Made by a program: the position numbers and the translations under genes. Source: a virus. Taken from it: a stretch of 64,000 nt of DNA. The notes beneath the pieces were generated by a model. It had not been told where the DNA came from and made no database searches. It saw nothing but the letters and a program-made list of their open reading frames with translations. The first letter of the stretch is position 1, and each line of letters begins with the position of its first letter. Location of the stretch: positions 1 to 64,000 of IMG/VR virus record IMGVR_UViG_3300034021_000300; one strand, written 5' to 3'. This document shows positions 3,001 through 59,923 of the stretch, piece by piece.

Positions 3001-6000
3001 CTACCTTATTAATGGGCAGGCTTTTAATACTTTATTGCATGGAGACTTAGCTTACAAAATTAAAAGTCCTGAAGACCATGTAAAAAGGTTAAAAGGGGCA
3101 CATGGAGCTTTAACTTCTTTATACGGAAGGCAAATAAAATTTAAAGTTATTCCTGACATAAAAAAAGAAAAAAGAAAAATAGTAGTTGATGGGTTACCTA
3201 AATTTGTAGAAGTTACAGAAGCAGAAAGAGCAAAAGCAAGAGAAAAAATTATAGCAGACAATCCTAATTTATCTGAAAAAGAGATAGTAAAGAAAATAAA
3301 AGAAAAACTTGAACTTGATGAACATAACCTTGCAGATGCACAGGCATATACTACTTTAGACTTTCAAATTGCTCGTTTAAAAGAATTAGGTAAAACTTCA
3401 CCTGCAATAGTTAAGATACTTGAAAAAGTAAGGAATGGTGTAGAAATTACAAGGAAAGAGCTTGAATTACTAGAAGGGGCTGACTCTTTACTTAATCCTA
3501 AAAAAGACTTAGCTTATGCACTTAACGCTAATTTAAAGATGTCTGTCCTTACACTAACTAGAGAACTTGTTTCATACAAATCTAAAGGAGAGTGGCTTGC
3601 TATACCAGGGCGTGAAAAAGAGCATAAGATACTAAATGATATGGTAAAGAATACCATAGATTTAGTAGCCCATGAATCTGCAAGTAAAGGCACTACAATC
3701 ATAGATGAAGTAAGAACTTTAAATGGGGAATACTATGGTGAGCAAGTATTAACTAAAGGAGTTAAACAGAAAATAACTGATGGTACACAACAGCTAGCTT
3801 TAATTTGGTCAGAATTACCACAAGAACTTGAAAGCCTTGTAGAAAAACTAGACGAGGCTGAACAAAACAGGGTAATACAATCAACAGAGTTTGCACTTTC
3901 TTTACTTAAAGAAAAAGATGAAACAACTCTTAAAAAAGTTTTACCTAACTGGTATAATAGTTTAGTATCTACAGGGGCTTCTCCACAATTATTAGAAATA
4001 TTTAAACCTAATGCTGCTGGAGAACCTACATTAAATCCTAACATATCTATATCTGTAGCTAAATTTACTGCAATGTACTTAGCCCATTGGTCTAATCACG
4101 CTTTAAAACAAAAAGTTGCAGGCTCTAAATTTACTCTTGTAACTCCATTTAATGTAATGGTAGATAAAGATGATAATGTAGTAAGAGTAGATCAGTTTAA
4201 ATCAGGTGCAAAATATACTAAACCAAGACCTCTGGCTTACAACAAAAGAGGTAAACTAAATGGTAGAGAAATAGTTTATTCAGAGTGTATTGTATCTGCT
4301 TATTACAAAGAATTGTATAATCTAAAAGAAGGTGATGAAATACCTGAAGATTTGGCTTATATGATGGGTTACCGTATTCCTACAGAAGATAAAGCCTCTA
4401 TGGGCGTGCTTAAAGTAGTAGATTTCTTACCTGCAATATATGGTAATGCCATAATGATTCCTGAAGAATTGCAATACCTTTCAGGTGCTGACTTTGATAT
4501 TGACTCTCTGTTTGTACAAAAATATGATATATACGAAAAAGATGGTAAGTTCTACAAATATGGTAGTGCCACAACTACAGAAGGTCAATTTGAAGAGTTT
4601 TTAAATTATGTAAAAGATGAAACTGATGTAGTTGATTACCAAAAAACTTTGTTAGAAGCTAACGAAGAATACCAAGATCTTTTAAAACAAGAAAAGGAAC
4701 TACAAAAATTAATAGAAGCTAGGAATGAAAATATTGCAGAGTTAGACGAAAAACTAAGGGAGGCAAATGATTTTATACCTCTATCTTTATATGAAGAATC
4801 TGAAAAAGAAATTACAAGGTCTTGGGTACTCCCCGCAAAATCTAAAGAAATAGCTGAACAAAAAAGCTTAATAGAACAAGCAAAAGAAATACAACAAAGA
4901 AAGCAAGAAATAAAAGCTAATAAACTAGCAAGTGCCTTACGTTATTATGAATTACCTGCAAGTAAAACTGCTTGGGCAGCTGCTGTAAAAGAAGGTAAAT
5001 ATCCTGATGGTAAATTTAAAGCTGTTCTTAATAACGATTTGCTTACTTACAAATTAGAAATGTTAGGTAATGAAAAAGTACAAAATACTTTGGCTTCTGA
5101 AAAAACATCTAACGAACCTTTATTAAAGCTACAAGAAACGCTAGCAATGCAATTTCCTGCTACATTTGATAGTGGTAAGCAATCATTAGGATTCTTTAGC
5201 TTTAATGATTTAGCAGTAGCTATGGCTAATAATGATGCAGGTTCTGATGGTATTGGCCCAGCAGCTGTATTTAATGTACTATACCAATACTTAGCTAAAC
5301 AAGGTGTAGGTATAAAAGATGCTCAAAGATTTGCAATAAAAGAAGGCTTTACTGTAAGAAAATATTATCAATTTAAAGGGTTTTCTTTTAAAAAGGACGG
5401 AGTATATAGAAATGCTGAAGACAAAAGGATTGTAAAAACCATTTCAGCAATCATTTCAGCAATGACTGACAATGCTAAGGAACCTATTGCAGCAAAGTTA
5501 AATCTTAACTTAGAAACATTAGGGCCTGTACTTGTAATGTTAGGAACTGGTGTAAAACTAAGCACAGCTATAAAAATAGCAAACTCGCCTAAAGTAAAAC
5601 AACTATCGCAAGAAATACTACAAAGTAAGTCTAACTTTTCTGATGTATCTGCGTATAGTATTGTGCAGAATGCAAAAGCAGAAGTGGCTGATGTAGATTT
5701 TACACAAGAAACCACAGTATTAGACGAAGAGTTGCTAGACCTTTTATTAAAAGATGGGGAAGATATTGGAACAACATCTGATATTGCATTAAAATTGTAT
5801 TTAAATGCACGAGAAATATCAGAAGATATATTAAAAGGGCGTGATATACTTTCTCTACGCAAAGGTGTACCTGCTACTTTTGGTGAAGTAGATAAAATAA
5901 TAACTTCTTTAAATAAACTAAGAGATGGAAAAACTCCTGCAACACTAGGATTAAGTAGATTACTAGACGTTAAACCTATTGAAGCCTTAACCAAAGCACT

Positions 6001-7498
6001 TGAAGATTTAAATAGTGTTGCACAACAGTTATTTACAATGCAACACCCATATATTAAAGAAACCTTTAATGTGGTAAAACAAGAAGTTAAAAGGTCAGAA
6101 AGTAAAGATGTATCAAATAAGATATATAGCGATTTAAGTTCTTTTATGAGTTTGTCAATTTTTAGAAAATACTTAGAAGACTATGTTCCATCTAAAAAGA
6201 ATGAAGTTAAATTTATAGAAACATTTAAAGAAGTATTTACAGAAGATGTTTTGTTTGAAAAAACATTGCTAGAAGAAGTAGAAGATTTAAAAAAGAATGC
6301 TAAAAAATATAATTTACAGAACAATAGGTTTTTAAAATATCTATCTACTGAACCAAGGTTAATAAAAAGAACTGTAGATAAAATAGAAGGTAATACACGT
6401 CAGTTAAGAGATTCGGATTACCAATTAGAACTTATTAATGGCTTTGATGATTTATACGCAAATCCTTTAACAAGAAAAACAGCTGTAAAACTATTTGCTT
6501 ACATACTACTTAAAGATGGTGCTAGATATAGAAATGCTTCATTCCAATCTGAGATACCTTCTTACATGTTTAAGATATACTCAAACGCTTTAGATGCGTT
6601 TAGAAGTAACCCTAGTATGGTTGATGTAGTTAAACTTGGAAATGAATTTATAAAGTTATACAGTTTAAACCTGGATAACAGAAAAAGCCTGTATAAAATA
6701 TCAAAAAGTAATCCTCTATTAGGTAAAGGTAAAAAAGATGGCTCATTCAAAGAAGAAGCAGGACAAGTAGCTATATCAAGGATAGAAAATAGTGTGTTCC
6801 CAGAAATAGCTGCTGCTTATAACTTTGAATATAATTCAAAAGATGATGTATATAAACCTGTACCTTTCTTAATGGTTGGTAATAATTTAAAGGTTATTTC
6901 AGAAATAAATGGAAAAGCTGTAACTAATTTATCTGATTTACGTGAAGGAGATAATTTTGTATATAAAGCTGCAAAAGATGTATTTGGTATATACAGCCTT
7001 ACCCCTTCAAAAAGAGGTATATCAGGTTATAGTTTCCCTTTAGAAAAAGCAATAGATTTATTTGGAGCTAAAGTTACAGAAGCAAAAGAAGAAGAAGAAG
7101 CTGAAAGTAGCGCAGGAATATCATTAGAAGAATTTTTACAGGCTAATAATTACTCTGATTTTAAAGAACCTGCTCCTGCTGAAAGAATAGTAACTGAGGC
7201 AGAATATAAGGAAATAAAAGCTGCTGAACCTGTTACTCCACCAACTGTAAAAGCTGCTCCTAAAGTTACCTCTGTATCAGAACAGCTTAAAGAATGGGGT
7301 GTTACTTTTATAGAAGGAATGGATCCATCTGGATTATTTCCTATGACAAAAGTAGAGTTTCATAAAGACACAGAGCAGAGAGTAAAAGATATAGTAAATA
7401 GAAATTTAGATAGTGGTATTCTCTCACAAAGTGCTATCTTAGCAGATATTTTAAAAGCAGGAAAAACAGAAACACTTAAAAAAGCAATAGAATGTTAA
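2..7498 (+). CDS. Giant virion RNA polymerase of crAss-like phage (5' end missing)
   Basis: The frame is open from base 2, so the gene begins outside the window and at least 2498 residues are encoded here. The catalytic motif DFDID (codons 4490-4504, context LSGADFDIDSLF) is the metal-binding aspartate triad of the single-chain, two-barrel RNA polymerases of crAss-like phages (Cellulophaga phage phi14:2 gp66 type), which travel in the virion and transcribe early genes after ejection. An HExxH zincin-like motif (HEAFH, codons 437-451) lies about 1350 residues before it, followed by a basic amphipathic stretch (near 660-740), so the protein may join a protease-like domain to the polymerase. Long charged helical stretches fill the rest. 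The stop overlaps the next ATG by 7 bases, so the two giants are co-translated. Seen: motifs, size, overlap. Inferred: packaging in the virion. Confidence 0.9.
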   Translation, partial: STQPRTDGRFNAFYTTTKESEIFDTYQEAVDWINAKYDAELAALETKTEVPVTEQPTSVRERRKNKSDEINNDINAEGPFKVSELPAETKIKFEEALAYLRSILPFEVGDIDAIADRLTNNGITFGAFIDNVIYLNKAAEAGTEYHEAFHGVMSLFSTEERAKYLEVAKKEHKITDKARAEFVLQRPVYQNLSKEALDKVMLEEYLADKFMAWKQGKKEPNGFFAKMFDKIKKFFDSIKDYFGGNLDSLFHRIDSGKYKHRTIGGNKLPMFMALPYNTEKIKGTDEKIIKKLNSTEESDLINTIRVEVGELITESLASKDVYTIKQAFDKVLEMRDNLYLDKADELSEEEGDEYYQKNSGLFKITGVKEAVFEKVKSQIQFLLSVDEEIAERILSKEEEEDLRNYEASALQNTGISSMTQYVRILIATAHINAIDKYGVPYKKGINPSTIYNSISRTLLNTAPENFMRKLEIFSEYNPEVKIFTDYLKDKLNWNNETNNPGLNNDGELKNEHIWNAFKKAFHKFKVESMMTRLSSNGETKVSSSNAKDVDTQQIERWQIGYRNFIEKNFTKLNIADFIYFNATSPITDEQLEEESKKAKATLDSIGIKLSPLYLQYSLLVTKKERTDKQQELMDLYENFYGLNGSDGKFLKELITDFINTGLNPFTKGDEGMMARLKALAMENASFDETAGSSTFQAADGELRGDTSLGSFFLKRVAQLQKPEARAEDLEEFTRFYANQEDEWMIPLHHLATLDNPLYEHAETFDKKFVFTNIDGIRATEYDEQGNEINKQEGTVFKNMVPLEKLLTFMSLYSTTKVKTTKEGKKINYAYYYPQVIEAASTGYAILLPVKPYYDKGYKPAFYQALLSFVKNEHARIKYVQENKDLPSIRNFNVGEKNGLKFFENSWISPELSEKLIALNSVDEMSVELKKELKDNIDQFVQQDYLLTVDTLVREGAIIEVEGEFYTRLLPEAFRTDKKITKDEKTYQKVNTEKIRSMQANYLINGQAFNTLLHGDLAYKIKSPEDHVKRLKGAHGALTSLYGRQIKFKVIPDIKKEKRKIVVDGLPKFVEVTEAERAKAREKIIADNPNLSEKEIVKKIKEKLELDEHNLADAQAYTTLDFQIARLKELGKTSPAIVKILEKVRNGVEITRKELELLEGADSLLNPKKDLAYALNANLKMSVLTLTRELVSYKSKGEWLAIPGREKEHKILNDMVKNTIDLVAHESASKGTTIIDEVRTLNGEYYGEQVLTKGVKQKITDGTQQLALIWSELPQELESLVEKLDEAEQNRVIQSTEFALSLLKEKDETTLKKVLPNWYNSLVSTGASPQLLEIFKPNAAGEPTLNPNISISVAKFTAMYLAHWSNHALKQKVAGSKFTLVTPFNVMVDKDDNVVRVDQFKSGAKYTKPRPLAYNKRGKLNGREIVYSECIVSAYYKELYNLKEGDEIPEDLAYMMGYRIPTEDKASMGVLKVVDFLPAIYGNAIMIPEELQYLSGADFDIDSLFVQKYDIYEKDGKFYKYGSATTTEGQFEEFLNYVKDETDVVDYQKTLLEANEEYQDLLKQEKELQKLIEARNENIAELDEKLREANDFIPLSLYEESEKEITRSWVLPAKSKEIAEQKSLIEQAKEIQQRKQEIKANKLASALRYYELPASKTAWAAAVKEGKYPDGKFKAVLNNDLLTYKLEMLGNEKVQNTLASEKTSNEPLLKLQETLAMQFPATFDSGKQSLGFFSFNDLAVAMANNDAGSDGIGPAAVFNVLYQYLAKQGVGIKDAQRFAIKEGFTVRKYYQFKGFSFKKDGVYRNAEDKRIVKTISAIISAMTDNAKEPIAAKLNLNLETLGPVLVMLGTGVKLSTAIKIANSPKVKQLSQEILQSKSNFSDVSAYSIVQNAKAEVADVDFTQETTVLDEELLDLLLKDGEDIGTTSDIALKLYLNAREISEDILKGRDILSLRKGVPATFGEVDKIITSLNKLRDGKTPATLGLSRLLDVKPIEALTKALEDLNSVAQQLFTMQHPYIKETFNVVKQEVKRSESKDVSNKIYSDLSSFMSLSIFRKYLEDYVPSKKNEVKFIETFKEVFTEDVLFEKTLLEEVEDLKKNAKKYNLQNNRFLKYLSTEPRLIKRTVDKIEGNTRQLRDSDYQLELINGFDDLYANPLTRKTAVKLFAYILLKDGARYRNASFQSEIPSYMFKIYSNALDAFRSNPSMVDVVKLGNEFIKLYSLNLDNRKSLYKISKSNPLLGKGKKDGSFKEEAGQVAISRIENSVFPEIAAAYNFEYNSKDDVYKPVPFLMVGNNLKVISEINGKAVTNLSDLREGDNFVYKAAKDVFGIYSLTPSKRGISGYSFPLEKAIDLFGAKVTEAKEEEEAESSAGISLEEFLQANNYSDFKEPAPAERIVTEAEYKEIKAAEPVTPPTVKAAPKVTSVSEQLKEWGVTFIEGMDPSGLFPMTKVEFHKDTEQRVKDIVNRNLDSGILSQSAILADILKAGKTETLKKAIEC

Positions 7499-13694: not shown

Positions 13695-13942
13695 ATTAAT
13701 TCTAATTTTTCTATACAAATTGTAGCTCCATAAGAACAAAAATCTGTTGCTGTATAAAAACCATTTTTATATTTATTAAGTTTAGTATTTCTTACTGCAA
13801 AATTATGCTTAATATAAGTTTTTGCAATTTCTACAGCCTCTTTTTCATCAGCCATCAACCCCAACTCAGTAGTTTCTATATCATCAGCATCTCTTGTAGT
13901 ATCAGCATAATTAACAGTTTTGTATATTCTAAATACTTCCAT
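13682..13942 (-). CDS. Small hypothetical protein
   Basis: An 86-residue protein (MEVFRIYKTVNYADTTRD...) with a beta opening, a central helix (EKEAVEIAKTYIKHNF) and a beta C-terminus. Unknown family. Its start abuts the stop of the lipoprotein-like gene at 13942, consistent with coupled translation. Confidence 0.55.
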   Translation of the reverse strand: MEVFRIYKTVNYADTTRDADDIETTELGLMADEKEAVEIAKTYIKHNFAVRNTKLNKYKNGFYTATDFCSYGATICIEKLELIWKS

Positions 13943-14187
13943 TAGTTTATAATTTTAACTCGTTCATTATTACTTAATATAACAATGTACACACCATCAT
14001 CTAATTTAGACACTTCTTTACCTACTACATCTGTTATACATTCAATCTCTGGTACTTCAATGTTAGGTGCTATAGAGTCTACACAAGTACTCATATACCT
14101 TGTAGTTAGCTTTGGATTACCATTACAGCAAATTCTACAGCTCTGTAGTAGAAGTGTTGTTAGAATCAATATTATTAGTTTTCTCAT
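13942..14187 (-). CDS. Predicted small lipoprotein
   Basis: An 81-residue protein with a lipoprotein signal: positive start (MRKL), hydrophobic core (IILILTTLLL) and lipobox LQSC, giving a mature N-terminal cysteine near residue 17. The mature part has four more cysteines. Lipid-anchored phage proteins in other systems often block superinfection at the host envelope; this role is only inferred. The start overlaps the upstream gene by 4 bases. Confidence 0.65.
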   Translation of the reverse strand: MRKLIILILTTLLLQSCRICCNGNPKLTTRYMSTCVDSIAPNIEVPEIECITDVVGKEVSKLDDGVYIVILSNNERVKIIN

Positions 14188-19621: not shown

Positions 19622-20525
19622 TTGAATCGTAAGCTAAATGCTTCATTTGAATTTCTTCGTTTATTACTCCAATAACTTCATACTCACAAGCTCTGCCTTT
19701 CATATTGTTATAATCTGAAGGGATTGCCACTACATCTCTTGGATTTACCTTAACCATAATTAAAGTATTACCGCTATAAGTAGAAGCATAGCCCCATGAA
19801 GCAAAATGCAGACCATTGGAACAAGTTTGGTTTCTATTGTTATCTACAGCTTGTCTAGGCATACTAACTATTTGACCAACACTATTATCCATAGTACCTG
19901 TATAGTTATCCACAAGCTTAAACTCTTTGTTAGAGTTTTCCAACCAAGCTTTAAATCTTGCTTTTATTTCTCCACCAACAAATAAACCTTTTGCACCTCT
20001 ACAGTTACCTGCTTTATCAAAGTATAACCCTGCAAATTCTTCAGGAACTTCTGCTGTATGGTCTACTTTATCTACTTTCTTGTAAGACACAAAACAGCCA
20101 TCACTAGTAATAGGAAGGCCATTATGCTCCAAGAATAAATAAAGCTCTTCAATAGCTCTAAATTCTGGATTTAGTTGACAATTTTCCCAGAACTTAATAA
20201 GAGCATCAATAGGCAATTCATCATCTAAGAAAGACATAATACGCTTTTGTAGTACTTCAGGTAAAGGTCTTTCTATTCCTTTAACAAATAGTTTACCTAA
20301 ATCTTCTACATACTCTATACGTCCATCAACTTTATGTGCTACACGTTTATATGGAGTTAAAGCAATCCATAATTCTTCTAAATTCTCTACACTTTCTTCT
20401 TTTTGACATTCAGTCAATAATCTTATAATATAATTCCTATGGTCTTTAGATTTAATCTTTATTAACCTGGGAGCACCATTAATGTTAATGGTAATTGTTT
20501 GTTCACTTGCAATGTAACTAATCAT
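19602..20525 (-). CDS. rIIB-like protein
   Basis: A 307-residue protein resembling T4 RIIB. The sequence DDELPIDALIKFWENCQLNP, then LYLFLEHNGLPITSDGCFVSYKKV, then NYTGTMDNSVGQIVSMPR and CSNGLHFASWGY follows the conserved order of the family. In T4, RIIA and RIIB act together at the membrane and in exclusion of lambda lysogens; the role in crAss-like phages is unknown. It follows the rIIA-like gene directly, overlapping by 8 bases, as expected for a functional pair. Confidence 0.75.
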   Translation of the reverse strand: MISYIASEQTITININGAPRLIKIKSKDHRNYIIRLLTECQKEESVENLEELWIALTPYKRVAHKVDGRIEYVEDLGKLFVKGIERPLPEVLQKRIMSFLDDELPIDALIKFWENCQLNPEFRAIEELYLFLEHNGLPITSDGCFVSYKKVDKVDHTAEVPEEFAGLYFDKAGNCRGAKGLFVGGEIKARFKAWLENSNKEFKLVDNYTGTMDNSVGQIVSMPRQAVDNNRNQTCSNGLHFASWGYASTYSGNTLIMVKVNPRDVVAIPSDYNNMKGRACEYEVIGVINEEIQMKHLAYDSNDFWND

Positions 20526-22274
20526 TGATTTCTTCTAGTTTTAGTTGATTTGTAGGTACTTCTTCTTTTAACTTACCTTTTTCTCGTAAATAATCTTTTA
20601 CTAAAGGTAATGATTCTGCTGTTAACTCTACATACTTAAATAACTCTGCACCTTTCATAAAGTTGTTATAATGGTGAACAAGATTAATATCTCTATTATA
20701 CCAACCATTCTTAAGTCCTATGTCTTTAAGTTCGTCTAATAGTTCAAAATCGTCTAATCTTGTAGTAGGAACATTCTGTAACTTACGCATTATATTAGCA
20801 TAATAAGGATTCAAACTATTCATAAATCCATTATGTTTAACCCATTGGCTCCTTATACCATTCTTATTGACAAACTCTCTTAAAACAGCTCTGGTGACTA
20901 ATTCTCTTAATACTGGATGATCTTTCATAACATCTTTAATGTGTATTGCCCTTCTTTGTGTAAAATGTTTTATGTTAGGGACTGAAATGATATAACCTTT
21001 GTATTGCTTATCTAATAATCTCCTACATAACTTAAGAAAAGCATCTAATCTTGGTTTATCTTCCTGGTTACCAACAAATACATAATCTGCAAAGTCTTTT
21101 TCAGTAAGTTTAACATCAGCTCTATTCCACATTAAATCATCATCAGACCAACGTGGATAATTAACTTCTACAGCAGGATATACACCATTCTGACGAACAT
21201 TAGCTACTTTACCTAACTTCCTTTGTTCTTTACGATAAGCAAGAAACTCATCTCTCTTTTCACTTAGCTTAGGAAGAGCATCTACTTCTTTCATTACATC
21301 TTCACAGAAATACACAAGGTCAGCAACTAACTCTTGTTTAGGAGTTATAGCAGGTATATCTACCTTTATAGCTCTTGCATTCAGTCCTAACCATTCTTGC
21401 ATTTCTTTATCCCATACACCATCTTCTTGGTATAATGTATAAAGATTAGGTTCATAATGATGGCTGTAAAAGTTTGTAGAAGAAGTATAAGCTCTACGAG
21501 AACTAGTATTCCAGTAATTACTGTTTACTTTATTAACTATCTGTGCATAATAACCTTCTTCTATCAGCATAAAAGGTCTGTAGTTATTAAATACTACATC
21601 TTCAAAGTCAGACCATACAAAGATTTTACCACCATCATACTTATTAATCTGTACTTTAGGTTTAATCTGCTTTTCCAAGAGATTATTAAATTCTCTGAAA
21701 GTTGTACAGTTCTTGATAGATTCTATGTAGCCTTCTTTAAGCTTCTCTTTTACTTTGGCAAACTTAGCTTTTAATAACTCTATTGTTTTACCTGTATAGT
21801 CTAAATCTTCCCTTGACAAAGTAACTTTTACTTCACCTATGTTACATTTAACTACAACACCATCTAAATTACGTAGATTACTAAATTCTTCTAACTGAGG
21901 ATTACGTAAATCTATGTTGTAAAGTATTTTACCATTAAGTAAACGTAAATCTTCACTTCTGTTGGTAAGAATAAAATCATCATCTTCGTATGTAACTTCT
22001 TTCTTTAAGTCTACTGATAGATTCTTAGTTTCTATGTTACAGAATAGTAACTGATTAGTAATGGCTTGTTCAAATAAATACTTATCTCTTTGTTTTACAG
22101 GTATGATAATTTCAGTACCATTTCCCCTCTGCGTAGGTTGGCTAAACATCAGAGTAATACTACCTAAATCATCTTCATCTATATAACAATTATACTGATA
22201 CTCTGTACCATCATAATAAGTCTTTACATAGTAACTATCTGTGTAACTAAAGGCACTTTTTGAACCGATTCCAA
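20518..22274 (-). CDS. rIIA-like protein, exon 2 (C-terminal part)
   Basis: This exon supplies the last 585 codons of a split gene whose first exon is 23247-23607. It opens with the second half of the GHKL G2 box (GIGSKSAFSYTDSY), which has no ATG of its own; the first ATG is at 22149, 42 codons inside, so taking that ATG would lose a conserved motif. Joining the exons restores GGFGIGSKSAF and gives 705 residues, close to T4 RIIA (725). The remainder is helical with a basic C-terminal third. RIIA-type proteins pair a Hsp90-like ATPase fold with RIIB. Confidence 0.8.
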
Positions 22275-47614: not shown

Positions 47615-47800
47615 CATCTCTTTACACCCCACTAGGTAATCATGCAGTGGGCAGACGTAGGATTGTAAGAAGTAGCTTGAGGGAAACCTGTCATAGTGAA
47701 AATGAGTTTTCTCCTACAGAGGTAAAAGGATATAGTAAGTAATTGTTTGCTCTCACCAATGTAAGGTACAGGAAAGAAGAGCTGTAGGTTTAAGACGGGA
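47615..47800 (+). ncRNA. Candidate structured RNA upstream of groEL
   Basis: A 185-base non-coding stretch with strong pairing potential. CCCACT and AGTGGG form a hairpin (about 47633-47656). GTAGGA (about 47659) can pair with TCCTAC (about 47711), while the overlapping CCTACAG can pair with CTGTAGG (about 47782). The two pairings exclude each other, a form typical of switches or attenuators. No known class is recognised and no ORF is convincing. Confidence 0.4.
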
Positions 47801-47916
47801 CAATGAAAGTTATATCTGAAATAGAAATGGGAAGGCCAAAAGTTTTCTCAGGGCTTAAATTATCTTCAAAATTTCAAAAATTTCTTAAAAACTGTAAAAA
47901 AATAGTAAAATATTTA

Positions 47917-47945
47917 TTGCAGGTTGGGTTTTTTGTGTATATTTG
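47917..47945 (+). promoter_or_regulatory. Promoter of the groEL-groES-Tad2-like cassette
   Basis: TATATTTG (47938-47945) is an exact Bacteroidota -7 box, with TTG (47917-47919) 18 bases upstream. The start site would fall near 47950, 10-15 bases before the groEL ATG, which rules out an upstream start at 47924. Confidence 0.7.
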
Positions 47946-47962
47946 CTCAAAACAATTCAAAA

Positions 47963-49528
47963 ATGAGCAAAATAATAGAATTTCACACAAGATCCCTCCA
48001 GAAAGGTGCTAACATTTTAGCAAATGCAGTAAAAGGTACTCTTGGCCCACAAGGAAGGAATGTAATTCTTTCACGTCAATTCAATGCACCACACATTACT
48101 AAAGATGGTGTTAGTGTAGCTTCTTCAATAAAGCTTGAAGATCCAAATGAAAATCTTGGAGCACAACTTTTACAGGAGATAGCTAATAAAACACTGGAAG
48201 TCTCAGGAGATGGTACTACTACAAGTATTGTTTTAGCACAAACCATTCTTAATGAAGGACTAAGACTAATAGCTGAAGGCACAAATCCTGTAAAATTAAA
48301 GAAAGGTATAGAGCTAGCAACAGTAGAAGCTATACAATCCATTAAATCACAATCACTACTATTACAATCAGATTCAATACTTAATGTAGCTACTATATCA
48401 GCTAATAATGACTTTACTATAGGTAAACTAATAGCTGATGCTGTAAATCTAGTAGGAGAAGAAGGGCTTATTACAGTTGAAGAATCAAGGTCTACTGAAA
48501 CATACATAGAAGTTACAGAAGGACTAAAGATAGATAAAGGGTACATTTCACCTTACTTTGTTACTGACCCAAACAAAATGGTAGTAGAATATCAAAATGC
48601 ACTTATCCTGATTACAGATGAAAAGATAACAGCTACTACTCAAATACTTAAGTACTTAGAAGCTTGTGTAAAAGAACAAAGAGCTCTTATTATTATCTGT
48701 GAAGACTTAGTAGATGAAGCTCTTTCTACCCTTGTAGTAAATAGAATGAAAGGTATCAAAGTAGCAGCTATCAAAGCTCCTGCACATGGTGACCATAAGA
48801 AAGAACTACTACAGGATATAGCTACTATTACTGGTGGTCTATACATTACCCAAGATAAAGGACTATCACTAGAATCTTCTCAACTATCTTCTTTAGGTCA
48901 ATCAGATGTAAAAATCTTTAAAGACTCTACCACTCTTATTAATGGTAAAGGCAAGAAAGAAGACATACTTATCAGAGTATCTCAAATTAAAGAACAAGCC
49001 AAACACGCTGAATTACAGTTTGACCAAGATAGGCTGACCAAGAGAGCACAAAAACTTTCAGGAGGAGCAGCTGTATTATACGTAGGAGCAACTACTGAAA
49101 CAGAATTAAAAGAAAAAGCTGATAGAATAGATGATGCTCTTTGTGCTACAAAAGCTGCAATAGCTGAAGGTATAGTACCAGGAGGTGGAACAGCATTTAT
49201 AAAAGCAATAGCTTCTATTTCTTCTTCAAAAGATAAAGACATTCAGTCAGGTATAGACTTAATAAAGAAAGCATTAGAAGCACCTCTTCGTCAAATACTT
49301 CAAAATGCAGGACTAGAAGAAGATCCTATTATTTCTAAGGTAAAGAAAGGCAAACAGTTTAATGCCAAGTCAGAGCAGTATGAAGATCTATTAGTTTCAG
49401 GAGTAATAGACCCAACAAAAGTAGTAAGAGTAGCCTTGGAAAACGCATCATCAGTATGTGCCCTATTCCTAACCACATCTTGTGTAGTAGCAGAAAAATA
49501 TATAGAAACCCCAATGAACTTTAATTAA
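47963..49528 (+). CDS. groEL: GroEL-type chaperonin (phage-encoded)
   Basis: A 521-residue group I chaperonin. The start MSKIIEFHTRSLQKGANILA leads into VKGTLGPQGRNV. The ATP-binding signature GDGTTTS (about residues 77-83) and VPGGGTAF (about 399-406), together with RIDDALCATKAAIAEG containing the catalytic aspartate, are intact. The apical domain keeps APAHGDHKKELLQDIA. The C-terminal GGM repeats of bacterial GroEL are missing, so the protein is about 25 residues shorter. ATG 47963 is chosen since the promoter overlaps any earlier start. Followed by groES, so a full folding machine is encoded, probably to fold phage capsid or giant cargo proteins. Chaperonins are rare in phages. Confidence 0.92.
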   Translation: MSKIIEFHTRSLQKGANILANAVKGTLGPQGRNVILSRQFNAPHITKDGVSVASSIKLEDPNENLGAQLLQEIANKTLEVSGDGTTTSIVLAQTILNEGLRLIAEGTNPVKLKKGIELATVEAIQSIKSQSLLLQSDSILNVATISANNDFTIGKLIADAVNLVGEEGLITVEESRSTETYIEVTEGLKIDKGYISPYFVTDPNKMVVEYQNALILITDEKITATTQILKYLEACVKEQRALIIICEDLVDEALSTLVVNRMKGIKVAAIKAPAHGDHKKELLQDIATITGGLYITQDKGLSLESSQLSSLGQSDVKIFKDSTTLINGKGKKEDILIRVSQIKEQAKHAELQFDQDRLTKRAQKLSGGAAVLYVGATTETELKEKADRIDDALCATKAAIAEGIVPGGGTAFIKAIASISSSKDKDIQSGIDLIKKALEAPLRQILQNAGLEEDPIISKVKKGKQFNAKSEQYEDLLVSGVIDPTKVVRVALENASSVCALFLTTSCVVAEKYIETPMNFN

Positions 49529-49533
49529 TTAAT

Positions 49534-49809
49534 ATGAAAACATCAAATGTAACACCAGTACCTCTTGGAGAAAGAGTCATAGTAGAACCAATAGTAGAAA
49601 AGCAAGAATCAGAGTTATTCTTAGCTGAAACTAAATTACCACCTGCAACACAAGGTATAATAAAAGCTGTATCAGAACAAGTAACTACTTTAAAAGTAGG
49701 AGATGTAGTACAGTTTAGCCCTAATACAGGAGTACCTTTACTTATGGTAGATAATGCCTACCTATTAATGAGAGTAGGAGATATAATTTGTAAATTTGTT
49801 GAACTTTAA
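49534..49809 (+). CDS. groES: GroES-type co-chaperonin (phage-encoded)
   Basis: A 91-residue protein with the GroES order: PVPLGERVIVEPI at the start, a mobile-loop-like segment (SELFLAETKLPPATQG), GIIKAVSEQV, LKVGDVVQFSPNTG, and DNAYLLMRVGDII at the end, as in GroES chains of about 95 residues. The usual loop IVL is replaced by LFL. It lies 5 bases after groEL and is translated with it. Confidence 0.9.
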   Translation: MKTSNVTPVPLGERVIVEPIVEKQESELFLAETKLPPATQGIIKAVSEQVTTLKVGDVVQFSPNTGVPLLMVDNAYLLMRVGDIICKFVEL

Positions 49810-49819
49810 AAATATAACT

Positions 49820-50152
49820 ATGAATTTTGGAGAAGCATTAGCTGAAGTTAAAAATGGAAACCTTGTTGCAAGAGAAGGTTGGAATGGTAAAAAGATGTTT
49901 ATATTTATGCGTCCATACGATAACATAGATATAACTGTAATACCAAATATCAAATCTTTACCAGAAAAAGTGAAGAAATATATGGTAGAGGAATTTGCAA
50001 AAGGCGAAACTCACTTTGTAAGTGGTAACCCTATACAGGTACATTTTGGAGAATACCTGTGTATGAAAGACCCACTAGGTAATATTGTAAATGGTTGGTT
50101 AGCAAGCCAAACAGATATGTTAGCTGAAGATTGGATTGTTTTTGAAGTATAA
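49820..50152 (+). CDS. DUF2829 / Tad2-like protein (putative anti-Thoeris)
   Basis: A 110-residue protein: MNFGEALAEVKNGNLVAREG, WNGKKMFIFMRP (about 21-32) and LGNIVNGWLASQTDMLAEDW, VVFEV-like end. This is the DUF2829 signature (GEAL..lk.G..v.R.GWNGk.MFl...; W.aSQtDmLAeDW). Tad2 proteins of this family bind the Thoeris signal molecule and so block that defence. ATG 49820 begins at the family's conserved start; a longer frame to 49796 overlaps groES. The activity is inferred from family. It is the last gene of the cassette, before a strong terminator. Confidence 0.75.
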   Translation: MNFGEALAEVKNGNLVAREGWNGKKMFIFMRPYDNIDITVIPNIKSLPEKVKKYMVEEFAKGETHFVSGNPIQVHFGEYLCMKDPLGNIVNGWLASQTDMLAEDWIVFEV

Positions 50153-50159
50153 TTGTTTA

Positions 50160-50186
50160 AGAGAGCTACGAAAGTAGCTCTTTTTG
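50160..50186 (+). terminator. Intrinsic terminator of the chaperonin cassette
   Basis: AGAGCTAC (50162-50169), loop GAAA, GTAGCTCT (50174-50181), then TTTT. A perfect 8-bp stem with a GNRA loop. It isolates the cassette from the structural block. Confidence 0.85.
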
Positions 50187-51810: not shown

Positions 51811-52318
51811 TATAACTCCTGAAGCATTAGGATTAAAAGCTTTCAGGGATATATGGGAAAGGGATAAAACAAAAAATAAAGACAGGGCTAAACTAGACTT
51901 GTCTTTTGTGTATTTCTTTGCTGATTGGCAGTCTACTTTCAAGAAACTGCCTGTAGAAGATAAGATTATTACATTAGAAAAAGAAGTATACGATAATAAG
52001 TATAAAGCAGACACATTAGTCTTAGCAGCAGCAAAGATGTATGAAGACATACAGAATGAATCTTCTTTTTCTCTTAGACATTTAGAAGCTGTAGAAAAGA
52101 CTGCTGTAAAAATCTCTAACTACTTACAAACAGTAGACTTAGCAGAAAGAGATAGCCAAAAAAGATTAGTATACAACACTAATCAACTACAGAAAACTAT
52201 AGCTGACTTTCCTGAGACAATAAGAAAGATTACTGAAATGCGTAAGCATGTAGAAGTAGAATTAACTCAAGATCCTAATCTTAGGGGAGGAGCACATAAA
52301 TCATCATTTGAAGATTAA
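51773..52318 (+). CDS. Possible small terminase or packaging factor
   Basis: A 181-residue helical, charged protein (KAFRDIWERDKTKNKDRAKL..., SFSLRHLEAVEKTAVKISNY) with an unstructured end. It lies immediately upstream of the large terminase with an overlapping stop/start (TAATG), the place where a small terminase subunit is usually found. The role is inferred from place only. Confidence 0.45.
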   Translation: MKLLKLENNHLCSITPEALGLKAFRDIWERDKTKNKDRAKLDLSFVYFFADWQSTFKKLPVEDKIITLEKEVYDNKYKADTLVLAAAKMYEDIQNESSFSLRHLEAVEKTAVKISNYLQTVDLAERDSQKRLVYNTNQLQKTIADFPETIRKITEMRKHVEVELTQDPNLRGGAHKSSFED

Positions 52319-54327
52319 TGTTAACACAAGAAGATATACTAGCTTTTACTGAAGTACGTAGGCACTTTGAAGAGTACGAAACATATTGTCCTTTTCCTGA
52401 ATCACGTACACCTAACTCACGTTGGATGCAATTCTGGCAGAGAGAACAAGAGCGTATATTAAAAGGTTACGAATACCTTCCTAATAAATTTATTACAGGA
52501 GAACTATACTATTATTTTAACTATAGTATAATGGACAAGACTGTAGAGAAAGATGGTATTACCTATACTCTTATGGGTGCTCCTGATACATGGGACGGAA
52601 CTATTGAAGTAGATACATACTATCAGGAAGCAAAGAAGAATAAAAGAGATTGCTTTATACTAAAAGGTCGTAGGAAAGGTTTATCATATTATGCAGCTAG
52701 CTGTGCCTCAAGGTTATACCATTTTGTAAGAAATAGTAATACATATGTAATAGCAGCCACAAAGCAATACATACTTGGAGCTGACTCTACTATGACCAAG
52801 ATATTTCAGAATGTTGACCACATGTCTGAACATACACCTTTTGGTAAACTACGTCAAAAGATAAATAAAGCTGACCACATAAGGGCAAGTTACTTAGAAA
52901 ATGTAAATGGACAGATAATAGAAAAAGGCTTTAAGTCTAACATTGCAGCAGTAGTATTAGATGACCCACAGAAATTAAGGGGTAAGAAAGGACAATTGAT
53001 TATTGTAGAAGAAGCTGGTTCATTTCCTAATCTTTTGGATGCCATACCTATCATACGTAAATGTATATTAGAAGGTACGCTAAAGATAGGTACCATACTT
53101 GCTTTTGGTACAGGTGGTGATGAAGGCCCAGGTTTTGCAGCAATGGAAACTGTATTTTATAAACCTGATGCATATGGGTTTCACTCAGTAAAGAATATAT
53201 GGGAAGAAGCTAAGTCTTCTCAACCTTGTTGTTTCTTCTTTCCTGCTTACAAAAACTACTTGGGTTTTATAGATGAGAATGGTAACTCTTTGGAGAAAGA
53301 AGCAAAAGATTATATATTACAACAAAGACTAGACAAAAAGAAATTAGGTGTAGATAATAAAACGCTGTTAAAAATGGCAGCTGAAGATCCAATTACACCT
53401 GAAGAAGCCATGCTTCGTACAAAGGGAACTTACTTTCCCATAACTGAAGCAAAGAAAAGATTATCAGAATTATATACAGACAAAGAGTTATCAAAGCACA
53501 ATGTTGGTAGATTAGAGTATAATGAAGATAAAGTAATTAAATGGGTTGATGTACAGGATGCACAACCTCAAAGAGAATGGCCTATATTAGACCCAACCAT
53601 AAATTACATAGAAGTATTTGAATTACCTCAACAAGATAAAAACACACTTGTAGTACCTCGTAACAGATATATAGGAGGTATTGACCCTTACAACCAAGAC
53701 CAGACAACAAACTCTGAATCAGTTGGTTGTATGTTTATAATGGACTTATGGACTGACAGAATTGTATGTGAATATACAGCTCGTCCTGAAAGAGCAGAAG
53801 ATTTCTATGAAACTTGTAGACGTATTTTAGTTTGGTACAATGCAACAGCAATGTATGAAGCTTCAGTAACACTTATGTACAAATTCTTTGAGAGGAAACA
53901 ACAATTGTATTTATTGGCAGATACACCTTCTTACTTACGAGATAGAAATACTTGGAGAGAAGGGTTAGATACTTCAAAAGGCATAAAGCCAACTGAAGAT
54001 GTAAACAAAAGAGGAAGAGAATCACAAAAAACCTGGATGTTATCTGACTTAGATGTAACTACAGGCACAAAGAAGATAGATACAATAAGAAGTATAGGTT
54101 ACTTAAAAGAAGTTATAAACTGGAATAAGGATGGTAACTTTGATAGAGTATCAGCTTTAAATATGTTATTCTTGTATAGAGAAGACCTTACAGATGATGT
54201 TGCAGAAGAAAGGAAAAAACCTAAGTCAAATAAATTCGGTAACTTTTTTACCAAATTTAAAGTACAAAGGAAGTTAACAGACATTTTCGATAAAGAAGAT
54301 TTTGAAACATTTGAGAAATACAGATAA
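52318..54327 (+). CDS. terL: Large terminase subunit (TerL)
   Basis: A 669-residue packaging motor with ATPase and nuclease domains. Walker A is atypical: LKGRRKGLSYY (about residues 115-125). Walker B is QLIIVEEAGSF (about 226-236). The nuclease domain starts near RYIGGIDPYNQDQTTN (about 450-465; D is a metal ligand), with a further stretch ATAMYEASVTLMYKFFE. It moves DNA into the prohead through the portal, which is encoded next with no gap (stop 54327, start 54328). Confidence 0.88.
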   Translation: MLTQEDILAFTEVRRHFEEYETYCPFPESRTPNSRWMQFWQREQERILKGYEYLPNKFITGELYYYFNYSIMDKTVEKDGITYTLMGAPDTWDGTIEVDTYYQEAKKNKRDCFILKGRRKGLSYYAASCASRLYHFVRNSNTYVIAATKQYILGADSTMTKIFQNVDHMSEHTPFGKLRQKINKADHIRASYLENVNGQIIEKGFKSNIAAVVLDDPQKLRGKKGQLIIVEEAGSFPNLLDAIPIIRKCILEGTLKIGTILAFGTGGDEGPGFAAMETVFYKPDAYGFHSVKNIWEEAKSSQPCCFFFPAYKNYLGFIDENGNSLEKEAKDYILQQRLDKKKLGVDNKTLLKMAAEDPITPEEAMLRTKGTYFPITEAKKRLSELYTDKELSKHNVGRLEYNEDKVIKWVDVQDAQPQREWPILDPTINYIEVFELPQQDKNTLVVPRNRYIGGIDPYNQDQTTNSESVGCMFIMDLWTDRIVCEYTARPERAEDFYETCRRILVWYNATAMYEASVTLMYKFFERKQQLYLLADTPSYLRDRNTWREGLDTSKGIKPTEDVNKRGRESQKTWMLSDLDVTTGTKKIDTIRSIGYLKEVINWNKDGNFDRVSALNMLFLYREDLTDDVAEERKKPKSNKFGNFFTKFKVQRKLTDIFDKEDFETFEKYR

Positions 54328-58399: not shown

Positions 58400-59923
58400 A
58401 TGATTGAAAATTTTGGAACCCTCTCAAAACTAGGCCCTAAAAGTTACATTGGGCCTTTGAAAGTACCTCACTTGGGTGAACTAGGTGAGAAATTTGGCTA
58501 CGATGTAGAAAAAATGGTCTATCGCAGATTGTTTCAATATCTACCTGCTGATGATTATATCGCATTTATGCGTGAATTTCCAGTACATGCCTTAGACACT
58601 AGCAATGATTATTTCTTCTGGCGTCTTGGTGGTACTAATCAAAAGGTAGTAACTCTACTTGACTGGTCTGACTTAGCAGGTGCTAAACCTTCTAAAGTAG
58701 GTCAAAATGGTGCTCAATGGTATATGTACTTTGCTGAGCCTCTATTTAAAATTGGTGATGTAGTTCTTGGTGATACACCTCTTGACTACAATATCATTGT
58801 TAAAGATTTTACAGAGGTTTCTAAAGATAAATATGAGTACCGTGTAGAACTTATTAATCAAGGTTCTCCTCTAATGTCTGTACCTGATTCAGAATTAACT
58901 GTAGGTTCAAACTGGTCTAAAGGCTGGCAATTGTCTCCTAACGAGCGTTCTTACCAAGGTACTGATTTTTATATGAATACCTTTGTTGAGCTTAAAGCCC
59001 CTACTTCATTGCACCGTATGCAATACAAAGTAGATGGTAACATGATTGAGCAAAACAAACCTATGCCTTTTGGTATGGTATTTAAAGATGATGCAGGTGC
59101 TAAAATTTCTGTAGGTGCTTATGTAAACTACTTTGATGCTCTTGCTATCCATCAGTTTGAAATGCAAGCTGCTCGTGCTTTCATTCTTTCTCAAAAGAAC
59201 TATGATAGCTCTGATATGGTTTATAACATTGATGATAAAAACAAATGTGTTATTAAATCATTCCCAGGTTTCTTCAAACAAATTGCTGCAACAAACACTA
59301 TTCCTCAAAACTCTATTAACTTAGACCAAATAGTTGACATTGCACAAGACTTGAACTTGGCTTACAAATATGATGAGCAACTTTACCTAGTAATTGAAAC
59401 AGGTTACTATGGTTACCAAGAAGCTTCTAAATGGTTAGAAAACCGTTCAACTACTTACACTCCTAACTGGACTTTACATCGCATTCAAGAGAATGGTGAT
59501 ATGGGTGGTCAAGGTTTAACTTACCAAGGTGTATTTACTCGTTTCCGTTCTTACAATGGTGTAAACATTGAAATACGTTTCCGTAAGTTCTTTGATGATC
59601 CTGAATTGTGGAAACAAAAAGATCCTTCAGGCTTAGGTCTAGTATCTTCTCGCCACATGTTAATCCGTTCAGGTGTTAAAGCTGATGGTCAATTCCTAGG
59701 TGATAGTGGTATTAAACGTCTATCTGTGAAAGCTTACGAAGATGGTATCTTCCGTTACATTCCAGGTATGCGTAACCCATTCTCTCCAGGTGGTACAGGT
59801 TGGGCAGGTAAATCTTCTACAGTATCTCCTGAAGATGCTTATGAAGTACATGGTATGATGTATAATGGTTGCGTTATAGAAGACCCAACTAAAATACTAT
59901 TCTTGCCACGTAACGTAGCTTAA
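58400..59923 (+). CDS. Major capsid protein, crAss-like (HK97 fold)
   Basis: A 507-residue protein starting MIENFGTLSKLGPKSYIGPL and KVPHLGELGEKFGYDVEKM, then YLPADDYIAFMREFPVHALD, the conserved N-terminal region of crAss-like capsid proteins (about 490-510 residues). It builds the T=9 shell. It uses more C-ending codons than neighbours (AAC, TAC, CGT), the sign of a highly expressed gene. A strong hairpin follows the stop. Confidence 0.9.
   Translation: MIENFGTLSKLGPKSYIGPLKVPHLGELGEKFGYDVEKMVYRRLFQYLPADDYIAFMREFPVHALDTSNDYFFWRLGGTNQKVVTLLDWSDLAGAKPSKVGQNGAQWYMYFAEPLFKIGDVVLGDTPLDYNIIVKDFTEVSKDKYEYRVELINQGSPLMSVPDSELTVGSNWSKGWQLSPNERSYQGTDFYMNTFVELKAPTSLHRMQYKVDGNMIEQNKPMPFGMVFKDDAGAKISVGAYVNYFDALAIHQFEMQAARAFILSQKNYDSSDMVYNIDDKNKCVIKSFPGFFKQIAATNTIPQNSINLDQIVDIAQDLNLAYKYDEQLYLVIETGYYGYQEASKWLENRSTTYTPNWTLHRIQENGDMGGQGLTYQGVFTRFRSYNGVNIEIRFRKFFDDPELWKQKDPSGLGLVSSRHMLIRSGVKADGQFLGDSGIKRLSVKAYEDGIFRYIPGMRNPFSPGGTGWAGKSSTVSPEDAYEVHGMMYNGCVIEDPTKILFLPRNVA

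What the first reader, a model, noticed from the sequence alone, without database searches (positions are those of the whole stretch)
47917..50186. Self-contained chaperonin plus anti-defence cassette (groEL, groES, Tad2-like)
An exact -7 box starts the unit and a perfect GNRA-loop terminator ends it; inside are a GGM-less GroEL, a GroES with an altered mobile loop, and a DUF2829 protein of the Tad2 type. A full phage chaperonin pair is rare; its coupling with a predicted Thoeris blocker in one isolated transcription unit looks like a moron-like module for host takeover or defence escape. GroEL/ES might fold the giant cargo or the Tad2-like protein itself.
Basis: partly seen in the sequence, partly recalled or inferred. 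Interest (0 to 1): 0.82.

Follow-up and report, generated by a model that had tools for sequence, protein, structure and literature searches.

The report
Phage capsid chaperonin with swappable anti-defence slot
A crAss-like phage carries its own protein-folding machine (GroEL/GroES) just before its head genes, and the last position of that transcription unit is a swappable slot that in this phage, though not in its closest relatives, holds a Tad2-type protein likely to soak up the bacterium's alarm molecules.

Summary
In detail: groEL (ATG 47963-49528), groES (49534-49809), tad2-like (49820-50152), a Bacteroidetes-type -7 box (47938) and a GAAA-loop terminator (50158-50186). Phage chaperonins are not new in Crassvirales: a 10-kDa co-chaperonin upstream of TerL is already annotated in crAss001 and others, and GroEL in phi14:2 and cr108_1. 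Five close relatives (91-100% GroES identity) keep groEL-groES and the terminator, but the position after groES differs: an unrelated 118-aa gene (L002), nothing (L003, L006), or a 111-aa gene plus a different Tad2 (33% identical; L004, L005). So the three-gene order is not conserved; Tad2 is cargo in a variable slot. GroEL keeps its ATPase and GroES/client-binding residues; GroES lacks the roof hairpin (as T4 gp31 does) and the capsid protein is 57.7 kDa (gp23 about 56), so capsid folding is the likeliest job. The Tad2 is closest to the long-insert kind solved with cGG and 1',2'-cADPR (8kbk, 8wjd), so 'Thoeris blocker' is probably too narrow. An unplanned lead: Tad2 lies within 1 kb of a Cpn10 gene in several unrelated head-gene clusters (nominal p about 0.002), which would fit counter-defence timed to capsid synthesis.

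The parts
47917..47945 (+). promoter-like element: TTG (47917) - 18 nt - TATATTTG (-7 box 47938-47945)
   Evidence: pattern count; nucleotide homology with L002, L004 and L005 begins exactly at 47938, and these have a different upstream sequence that again holds TTG-N19-TATATTTG
47963..49528 (+). groEL, 521 aa, no GGM tail
   Evidence: D52, D87, D398 and nine apical binding residues identical to E. coli
49534..49809 (+). groES (Cpn10), 91 aa, no roof hairpin, LFL mobile-loop motif
   Evidence: PF00166 42 bits; hhalign to 76 bacterial GroES p 9e-10; roof segment 10 aa vs 19 in E. coli and 14 in Bacteroidaceae
49820..50152 (+). tad2-like (PF11195), 110 aa, long-insert type; occupies the variable slot after groES
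   Evidence: slot comparison
50158..50186 (+). intrinsic terminator, GAAA loop, conserved in relatives whatever the slot holds
49810..50157 (+). variable slot between groES stop and terminator (empty in L003/L006; other genes in L002, L004, L005)
52318..54327 (+). terminase large subunit: start of the conserved packaging/head region downstream of the unit
   Evidence: phrog_6681 E 3e-106; 31-36% to Crassvirales TerL
58400..59923 (+). major capsid protein, 507 aa, 57.7 kDa: proposed main client of the chaperonin
   Evidence: phrog_11589 E 2e-32; mass; client role inferred

Best explanation
A crAss-like phage encodes a complete, probably active group I chaperonin (GroEL plus a GroES without roof) in its own promoter-to-terminator unit, directly upstream of the packaging/head genes. 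It most likely folds the phage's own large late proteins, above all the 57.7-kDa major capsid protein, as T4 does by pairing gp31 with host GroEL. The position between the groES stop codon and the terminator is a variable cargo slot. In this phage it holds a Tad2-family sponge that probably binds signalling nucleotides of Thoeris (cyclic ADP-ribose isomers) and also cyclic dinucleotides of CBASS, and is made together with the chaperonin. SHOWN by sequence: the genes, intact catalytic and binding residues, the conserved core and changing slot, the Tad2 family and fold. INFERRED: capsid as client, co-transcription, ligand binding, benefit against host defence.
For: Family matches. Active-site and apical residues. 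Missing roof and GGM tail, both expected to enlarge the cage; gp31 also lacks roof loops and folds the ~56-kDa gp23 (PMC6318259). Location upstream of TerL, shared with phi14:2 and cr108_1 GroEL and with annotated Crassvirales 10-kDa chaperonins; GroEL lies between tail sheath and tail tube genes in Vibrio phage Va1. Slot states in five relatives with 91-100% identical GroES; no Tad2 on the 96-kb contig of L002. Same terminator in all slot states. Tad2: phmmer E 1e-30 to 8kbi and 3.5e-30 to 8wjd; AF2 model pLDDT 82, Foldseek best hits 8wjd (with cGG) and 8kbi-8kbk; cyclic-dinucleotide binding through a long beta2-beta5 insertion (PMC12043709), whereas SPO1 Tad2 does not bind 3'3'-cGAMP (PMC11722364).
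Against: No transcript or protein data. The capsid client is an analogy: the mobile loop is not lengthened as in gp31, and the cage volume was not modelled. Inter-ring contacts differ from E. coli (A109E, E434K, S463D, V464P), so ring assembly may differ. Tad2 pocket residues could not be checked against ligand coordinates. TM-score of the Tad2 model to its best hits is only 0.61 because the insert is modelled at low confidence. Only one phage in hand carries this particular tad2 allele in the slot.
Confidence: 0.68

Rival explanations
1. A fixed chaperonin plus anti-defence cassette: the three genes travel and act together as a moron for host takeover.
For: Same strand, 5- and 10-nt gaps, one -7 box and one terminator. 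A second, divergent Tad2 sits in the same slot in L004/L005, and GroES-like plus Tad2 are neighbours in the other crass-like contig L007.
Against: L002, L003 and L006 keep groEL-groES without tad2; GroES homologues occur without Tad2 in crAss001, cr116_1, cr125_1, cr55_1 and cr53_1. The chaperonins are long-standing genes of the order at this site, not freshly acquired cargo.
Confidence: 0.1
2. GroEL/GroES exist chiefly to fold the giant virion RNA polymerase/cargo proteins (266 and 179 kDa) rather than the capsid protein.
For: The 2346-aa protein carries the DFDID RNA polymerase motif; phage EL GroEL folds beta-galactosidase, too big for E. coli GroEL (PMC5934643); altered inter-ring residues could favour single rings with larger cavities.
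Against: Proteins of 179-266 kDa do not fit any known GroEL cage whole; position is next to packaging and head genes; relatives of the order with equally large RNAPs have only the co-chaperonin.
Confidence: 0.12
3. The Tad2-like protein acts as the anti-CRISPR AcrIIA7 rather than as a nucleotide sponge.
For: Its best solved relatives are deposited as AcrIIA7 / inhibitor of type II CRISPR-Cas (8kbi, 9kzr).
Against: The same protein was solved with 1',2'-cADPR and cGG bound (8kbj, 8kbk), and Tad2 family members with known action sequester nucleotides (PMC12043709, PMC11722364).
Confidence: 0.06
4. The slot content is neutral: small genes come and go at a recombination-permissive spot and the adjacency of Tad2 to chaperonins has no functional meaning.
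For: Two of the slot genes match nothing in Pfam, PADLOC or NCBIfam, have only an insignificant PHROG hit, and have no relatives elsewhere. A small ORF is also inserted between groEL and groES in L003, and the upstream flank is swapped too.
Against: Tad2 was placed in this slot twice by different alleles (33% identical between flanks that are 91% identical), and Tad2 lies within 1 kb of Cpn10 in four other phage groups.
Confidence: 0.2

Closest known systems
Crassvirales '10-kDa chaperonin' upstream of TerL (crAss001 gp15, cr116_1 gp4, cr125_1 gp89, cr55_1 gp28)
   Same: GroES-like gene at the same place before HU/IHF-like gene and TerL; profile similarity to GroES for crAss001 and cr116_1.
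   Different: Those phages lack GroEL; their proteins are 119-140 aa and far diverged, whereas the window's is a recognisable Cpn10 directly behind groEL.
GroEL of Cellulophaga phage phi14:2 and crAssphage cr108_1 (Steigviridae, Asinivirinae)
   Same: GroEL upstream of TerL in Crassvirales.
   Different: Only about 36% identical to the window's, no adjacent Cpn10 recognised, shorter C-terminal part; common origin neither shown nor rejected (AU p 0.13).
Bacteroides phages SJC03/DAC16 groES-groEL pair
   Same: Nearest phage GroEL, 50-52% identity; GroES with equally short roof.
   Different: Order groES-groEL, not crAss-like phages, Tad2 12 kb away.
T4 gp31 / GroEL capsid-folding system
   Same: Co-chaperonin without roof loops, capsid protein of about 56-58 kDa.
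   Different: T4 uses host GroEL; gp31 has a longer mobile loop; the window phage brings its own GroEL.
HgmTad2/AcrIIA7 (8kbi-8kbm) and SptTad2 (8wjd)
   Same: About 50% identity over the whole length including the insert; same fold.
   Different: Binding by the window's protein is untested; its insert is slightly longer (110 vs 101-104 aa).
SPO1 Tad2 (8smf) and Myroides ModTad2 (9eib)
   Same: Same family and fold.
   Different: Lack the long insertion; bind gcADPR or His-ADPR respectively, SPO1 Tad2 does not bind 3'3'-cGAMP (PMC11722364, PMC13299392).

Membership tests
Group I chaperonin GroEL | curated family score (TIGR02348 equivalog) | tested here: met
   621.6 bits vs cut-off 582.1
Group I chaperonin GroEL | ATPase residues D52, D87, D398 | tested here: met
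   all identical
Group I chaperonin GroEL | apical GroES/substrate-binding residues | tested here: met
   9 of 9 identical to E. coli
Group I chaperonin GroEL | double-ring interface | tested here: inconclusive
   R452 and E461 kept, A109E, E434K, S463D, V464P changed
Group I chaperonin GroEL | GGM tail | tested here: not met
   ends ...EKYIETPMNFN; also absent from phi14:2, Calle_1, Va1, elemo and MT835992, so not a defining feature in phages
GroES/Cpn10 | Pfam PF00166 cut-off | tested here: met
   42 vs 21.1 bits
GroES/Cpn10 | NCBIfam GroES equivalog cut-offs | tested here: not met
   35.1 vs 109 bits, a diverged member
GroES/Cpn10 | heptamer binding to GroEL | not testable with these tools
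   needs biochemistry
gp31-type co-chaperonin | roof hairpin absent | tested here: met
   10 residues vs 19 in E. coli GroES
gp31-type co-chaperonin | lengthened mobile loop | tested here: not met
   mobile loop not longer than in bacterial GroES
Tad2 (PF11195) | Pfam cut-off and fold | tested here: met
   81.6 vs 25 bits; Foldseek probability 1.00 to Tad2 entries
Tad2 (PF11195) | family-invariant residues | tested here: met
   F3 K11 R18 G20 W21 N22 W93 L94 Q97 D99 L101 A102 E103 D104 W105 present
Tad2, long-insert cyclic-dinucleotide type | long insertion before the conserved C-terminal WLASQTDMLAEDW block | tested here: met
   insert aligns through HgmTad2 and SptTad2 with KSLPE and YLCMK motifs
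Tad2 | binding of cADPR isomers or cyclic dinucleotides; anti-Thoeris or anti-CBASS activity | not testable with these tools
   needs binding and plaque assays
Crassvirales | TerL, portal and capsid families plus giant RNAP with DxDxD | tested here: met
moron | accessory gene with its own promoter and terminator, absent from relatives | tested here: not met
   tad2 is absent from relatives but has no promoter of its own recognised; it shares the chaperonin unit's promoter and terminator

The most novel reading that the evidence does not exclude
Tad2-type nucleotide sponges recurrently sit beside co-chaperonin genes in head-gene regions of unrelated phages because the two are needed together: capsid protein is both the chaperonin's main client and a trigger of Thoeris signalling, so the sponge is made when the trigger is made (capsid-timed counter-defence). 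The slot behind groES in this crass-like lineage would then be a dedicated anti-defence cargo site whose other occupants (the 118-aa and 111-aa genes) are unknown anti-defence proteins.
Probability: 0.25. Interest if true: 0.68.

Novelty: new member of a known kind. Interest (0 to 1): 0.42.

Why it matters
It corrects the picture of a rare three-gene cassette to a known order-wide chaperonin locus with an attached variable cargo slot, and gives a small natural series (Tad2, other gene, empty, different Tad2) in near-identical phages in which the effect of one anti-defence gene could be compared directly. The recurrent Tad2-Cpn10 neighbourhood, if it holds in a larger sample, would offer a way to look for anti-defence genes beside phage chaperonins and would link counter-defence timing to capsid production.

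Tried and rejected
Tad2-likeness of cr108_1 gp91 next to groEL: PF11195 E 4e-4, below cut-off, and only the first 28 residues align weakly (hhalign 6%); not used. A single origin of GroEL in Crassvirales: tree with very long branches, window trio within Bacteroidota GroELs, union with phi14:2/cr108_1 not rejected (p 0.13); left open. A structured RNA in the 340-nt leader upstream of the promoter: no Rfam hit at E 1 and the fold is no better than shuffles (z +1.3). Identifying the alternative slot genes: no significant hits in Pfam, PHROGs, NCBIfam, PADLOC, phages or other IMG/VR contigs; an SIR2 hit in the L003 60-aa ORF is E 0.019 and ignored. Sigma-70 and generic terminator scans of 47-51 kb found nothing above shuffled expectation; sigma-70 is the wrong promoter type for Bacteroidota. 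Residue numbering was off by one for GroEL; one search is the corrected table. The article on dual-ligand Tad2 (PMC12159963) is not held, so its pocket residues could not be listed.

Full report
What is there. The window lies in a 94,185-bp virus record. Its TerL is 31-36% identical to Crassvirales terminases, portal and capsid match phage families, and the 2346-aa protein at 458-7498 carries a DFDID motif of the kind reported for crAss-like RNA polymerases (PMC7886860). At 47963-50152 lie groEL, groES and a Tad2-family gene in one direction with gaps of 5 and 10 nt. A Bacteroidetes-type -7 box, TATATTTG, lies 25 nt before the groEL start, and a hairpin with GAAA loop and U-run lies behind tad2.

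The chaperonin pair. The GroEL is above NCBI's equivalog cut-off. The catalytic residues D52, D87 and D398 and nine apical residues that bind GroES and client are identical to E. coli GroEL (roles from established GroEL knowledge). Four positions at the ring interface are changed (A109E, E434K, S463D, V464P), so ring assembly may differ; this was not tested. GroES is a diverged Cpn10 with LFL in the mobile loop and without the roof hairpin: 10 residues where E. coli has 19 and Bacteroidaceae 14. T4 gp31 also lacks the roof loops, a feature thought to let GroEL-gp31 take the ~56-kDa capsid protein gp23 (PMC6318259). The window's capsid protein is 57.7 kDa. GroEL also lacks the GGM tail, as many phage GroELs do. 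Capsid folding is therefore the likeliest job; it is an inference by analogy.

It is not a rare cassette in this order. A 10-kDa co-chaperonin upstream of TerL is already annotated in crAss001 and cr116_1, and a 'chaperonin' in cr125_1, cr55_1 and cr53_1. I checked this by profile comparison: crAss001 and cr116_1 resemble GroES (p 3e-4 and 2e-6) and cr125_1 weakly, while neighbouring genes used as negative controls give p 0.2-0.8; cr55_1 and cr53_1 could not be confirmed. GroEL itself is annotated in the Asinivirinae phi14:2 and cr108_1, again upstream of TerL. Six of seven further crass-like genomes tested have no GroEL, so GroEL is patchy while the co-chaperonin position is widespread. Outside the order, groEL-groES pairs occur in Bacteroides phage SJC03, Flavobacterium immuto and elemo, Cellulophaga Calle_1 and others. 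A GroEL tree puts the window trio on a long branch among Bacteroidota; whether it shares one origin with phi14:2 and cr108_1 is undecided.

The slot. Five IMG/VR contigs carry close relatives. GroES is 91-100% identical and GroEL 93-99.6%. Behind groES they differ: L002 (97% nucleotide identity up to the first bases of the slot gene, 92% from just before the terminator on) has an unrelated 118-aa gene and no Tad2 on its whole 96-kb contig; L003 and L006 have no gene at all, with the terminator directly behind groES; L004 and L005 have a 111-aa gene followed by another Tad2, 33% identical to the window's although the flanking GroES is 91% identical. The terminator is kept in all (z -4.0 to -6.6 in the four tested). 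On the other side, homology between the window and L002, L004 and L005 begins exactly at the -7 box. So the conserved unit is -7 box, groEL, groES, terminator; tad2 is an exchangeable passenger.

The Tad2-like protein. It passes the PF11195 cut-off, keeps every residue that is invariant in 22 aligned relatives, and its best solved relatives are AcrIIA7/HgmTad2 (8kbi series, E 1e-30) and SptTad2 (8wjd, E 3.5e-30); SPO1 Tad2 is much further. An AlphaFold model (mean pLDDT 82, insert 61-71) finds the same entries first, including complexes with cGG and with 1',2'-cADPR. Reviews state that Tad2s bind cyclic dinucleotides through a long beta2-beta5 insertion, separately from the gcADPR pockets (PMC12043709), while SPO1 Tad2 does not bind 3'3'-cGAMP (PMC11722364). 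The window's protein has the long insertion, so a sponge for both signal types is more likely than a pure Thoeris blocker. This is prediction; no binding was tested. Sponges can also be a liability: the Panoptes system is triggered by proteins that remove its cyclic dinucleotide, and SptTad2 gave a slight effect there (PMC12657218). That could explain why the gene comes and goes, but this is a guess.

An unplanned observation. Among Tad2 loci collected by similarity to Tad2 alone, several have a Cpn10 gene close by: L039/L046-L048 (portal, Tad2, Cpn10, scaffold/capsid; 300-600 nt), L193, L220, L243, and the crass-like contig L007, whose GroES-like protein is detected only by profile comparison. 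Searching 100 such contigs whole found Cpn10 in eight, which I group by eye into five kinds; in four the two genes lie within 1 kb, in one about 8 kb apart. Against uniform placement this has nominal p about 0.002. The caveats are serious: the test was devised after seeing the first cases, most contigs are short fragments, three of the four share a portal-to-scaffold layout, and both genes may simply favour head modules. Thoeris is reported to be triggered by phage capsid protein (PMC12043709), so making the sponge together with the capsid chaperone would make sense, but that is a hypothesis.

Verdict. Known kinds of gene at a known place, with a variable slot not described in what I could read and a weak but testable hint of a wider Tad2-chaperonin association.

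Noticed in passing
window 47616-47850: A non-coding stretch about 95% identical to L003 but absent from L002 and L004 at the same place; no Rfam hit and no unusual folding. The flank upstream of the -7 box is itself a replaceable segment.
   Followed up: partly
L004 2215-2916 and L005 5246-5947: A 233-aa gene directly upstream of groEL that by eye resembles very-short-patch/DUF559-type endonucleases (ELDGGQHFE...GY), possibly a homing endonuclease, where the window has the non-coding stretch.
   Followed up: no
L003 7568-7750: A 60-aa ORF inserted between groEL and groES, a second insertion point inside the unit.
   Followed up: partly
L039, L046-L048, L193, L220, L243, L007: Tad2-family gene within about 1 kb of a Cpn10 (or GroES-like) gene in head-gene clusters of apparently unrelated phages.
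   Followed up: partly
L084 7560-7952 (cr108_1 gp91): Protein directly before groEL whose N-terminus weakly resembles Tad2 (PF11195 E 4e-4, below cut-off); may be a degenerate relative or chance.
   Followed up: partly
window 458-7498: 2346-aa protein with DFDID, probably the crAss-type virion RNA polymerase; no Pfam hit.
   Followed up: no
window 20518-22149 (-): Protein matching the RIIA lysis inhibitor family (phrog_612 E 5e-25).
   Followed up: no
phage csAssE-Sib (OR575929), 13798-14076 and 100946-101137: Two Tad2-family matches in one phage genome.
   Followed up: no
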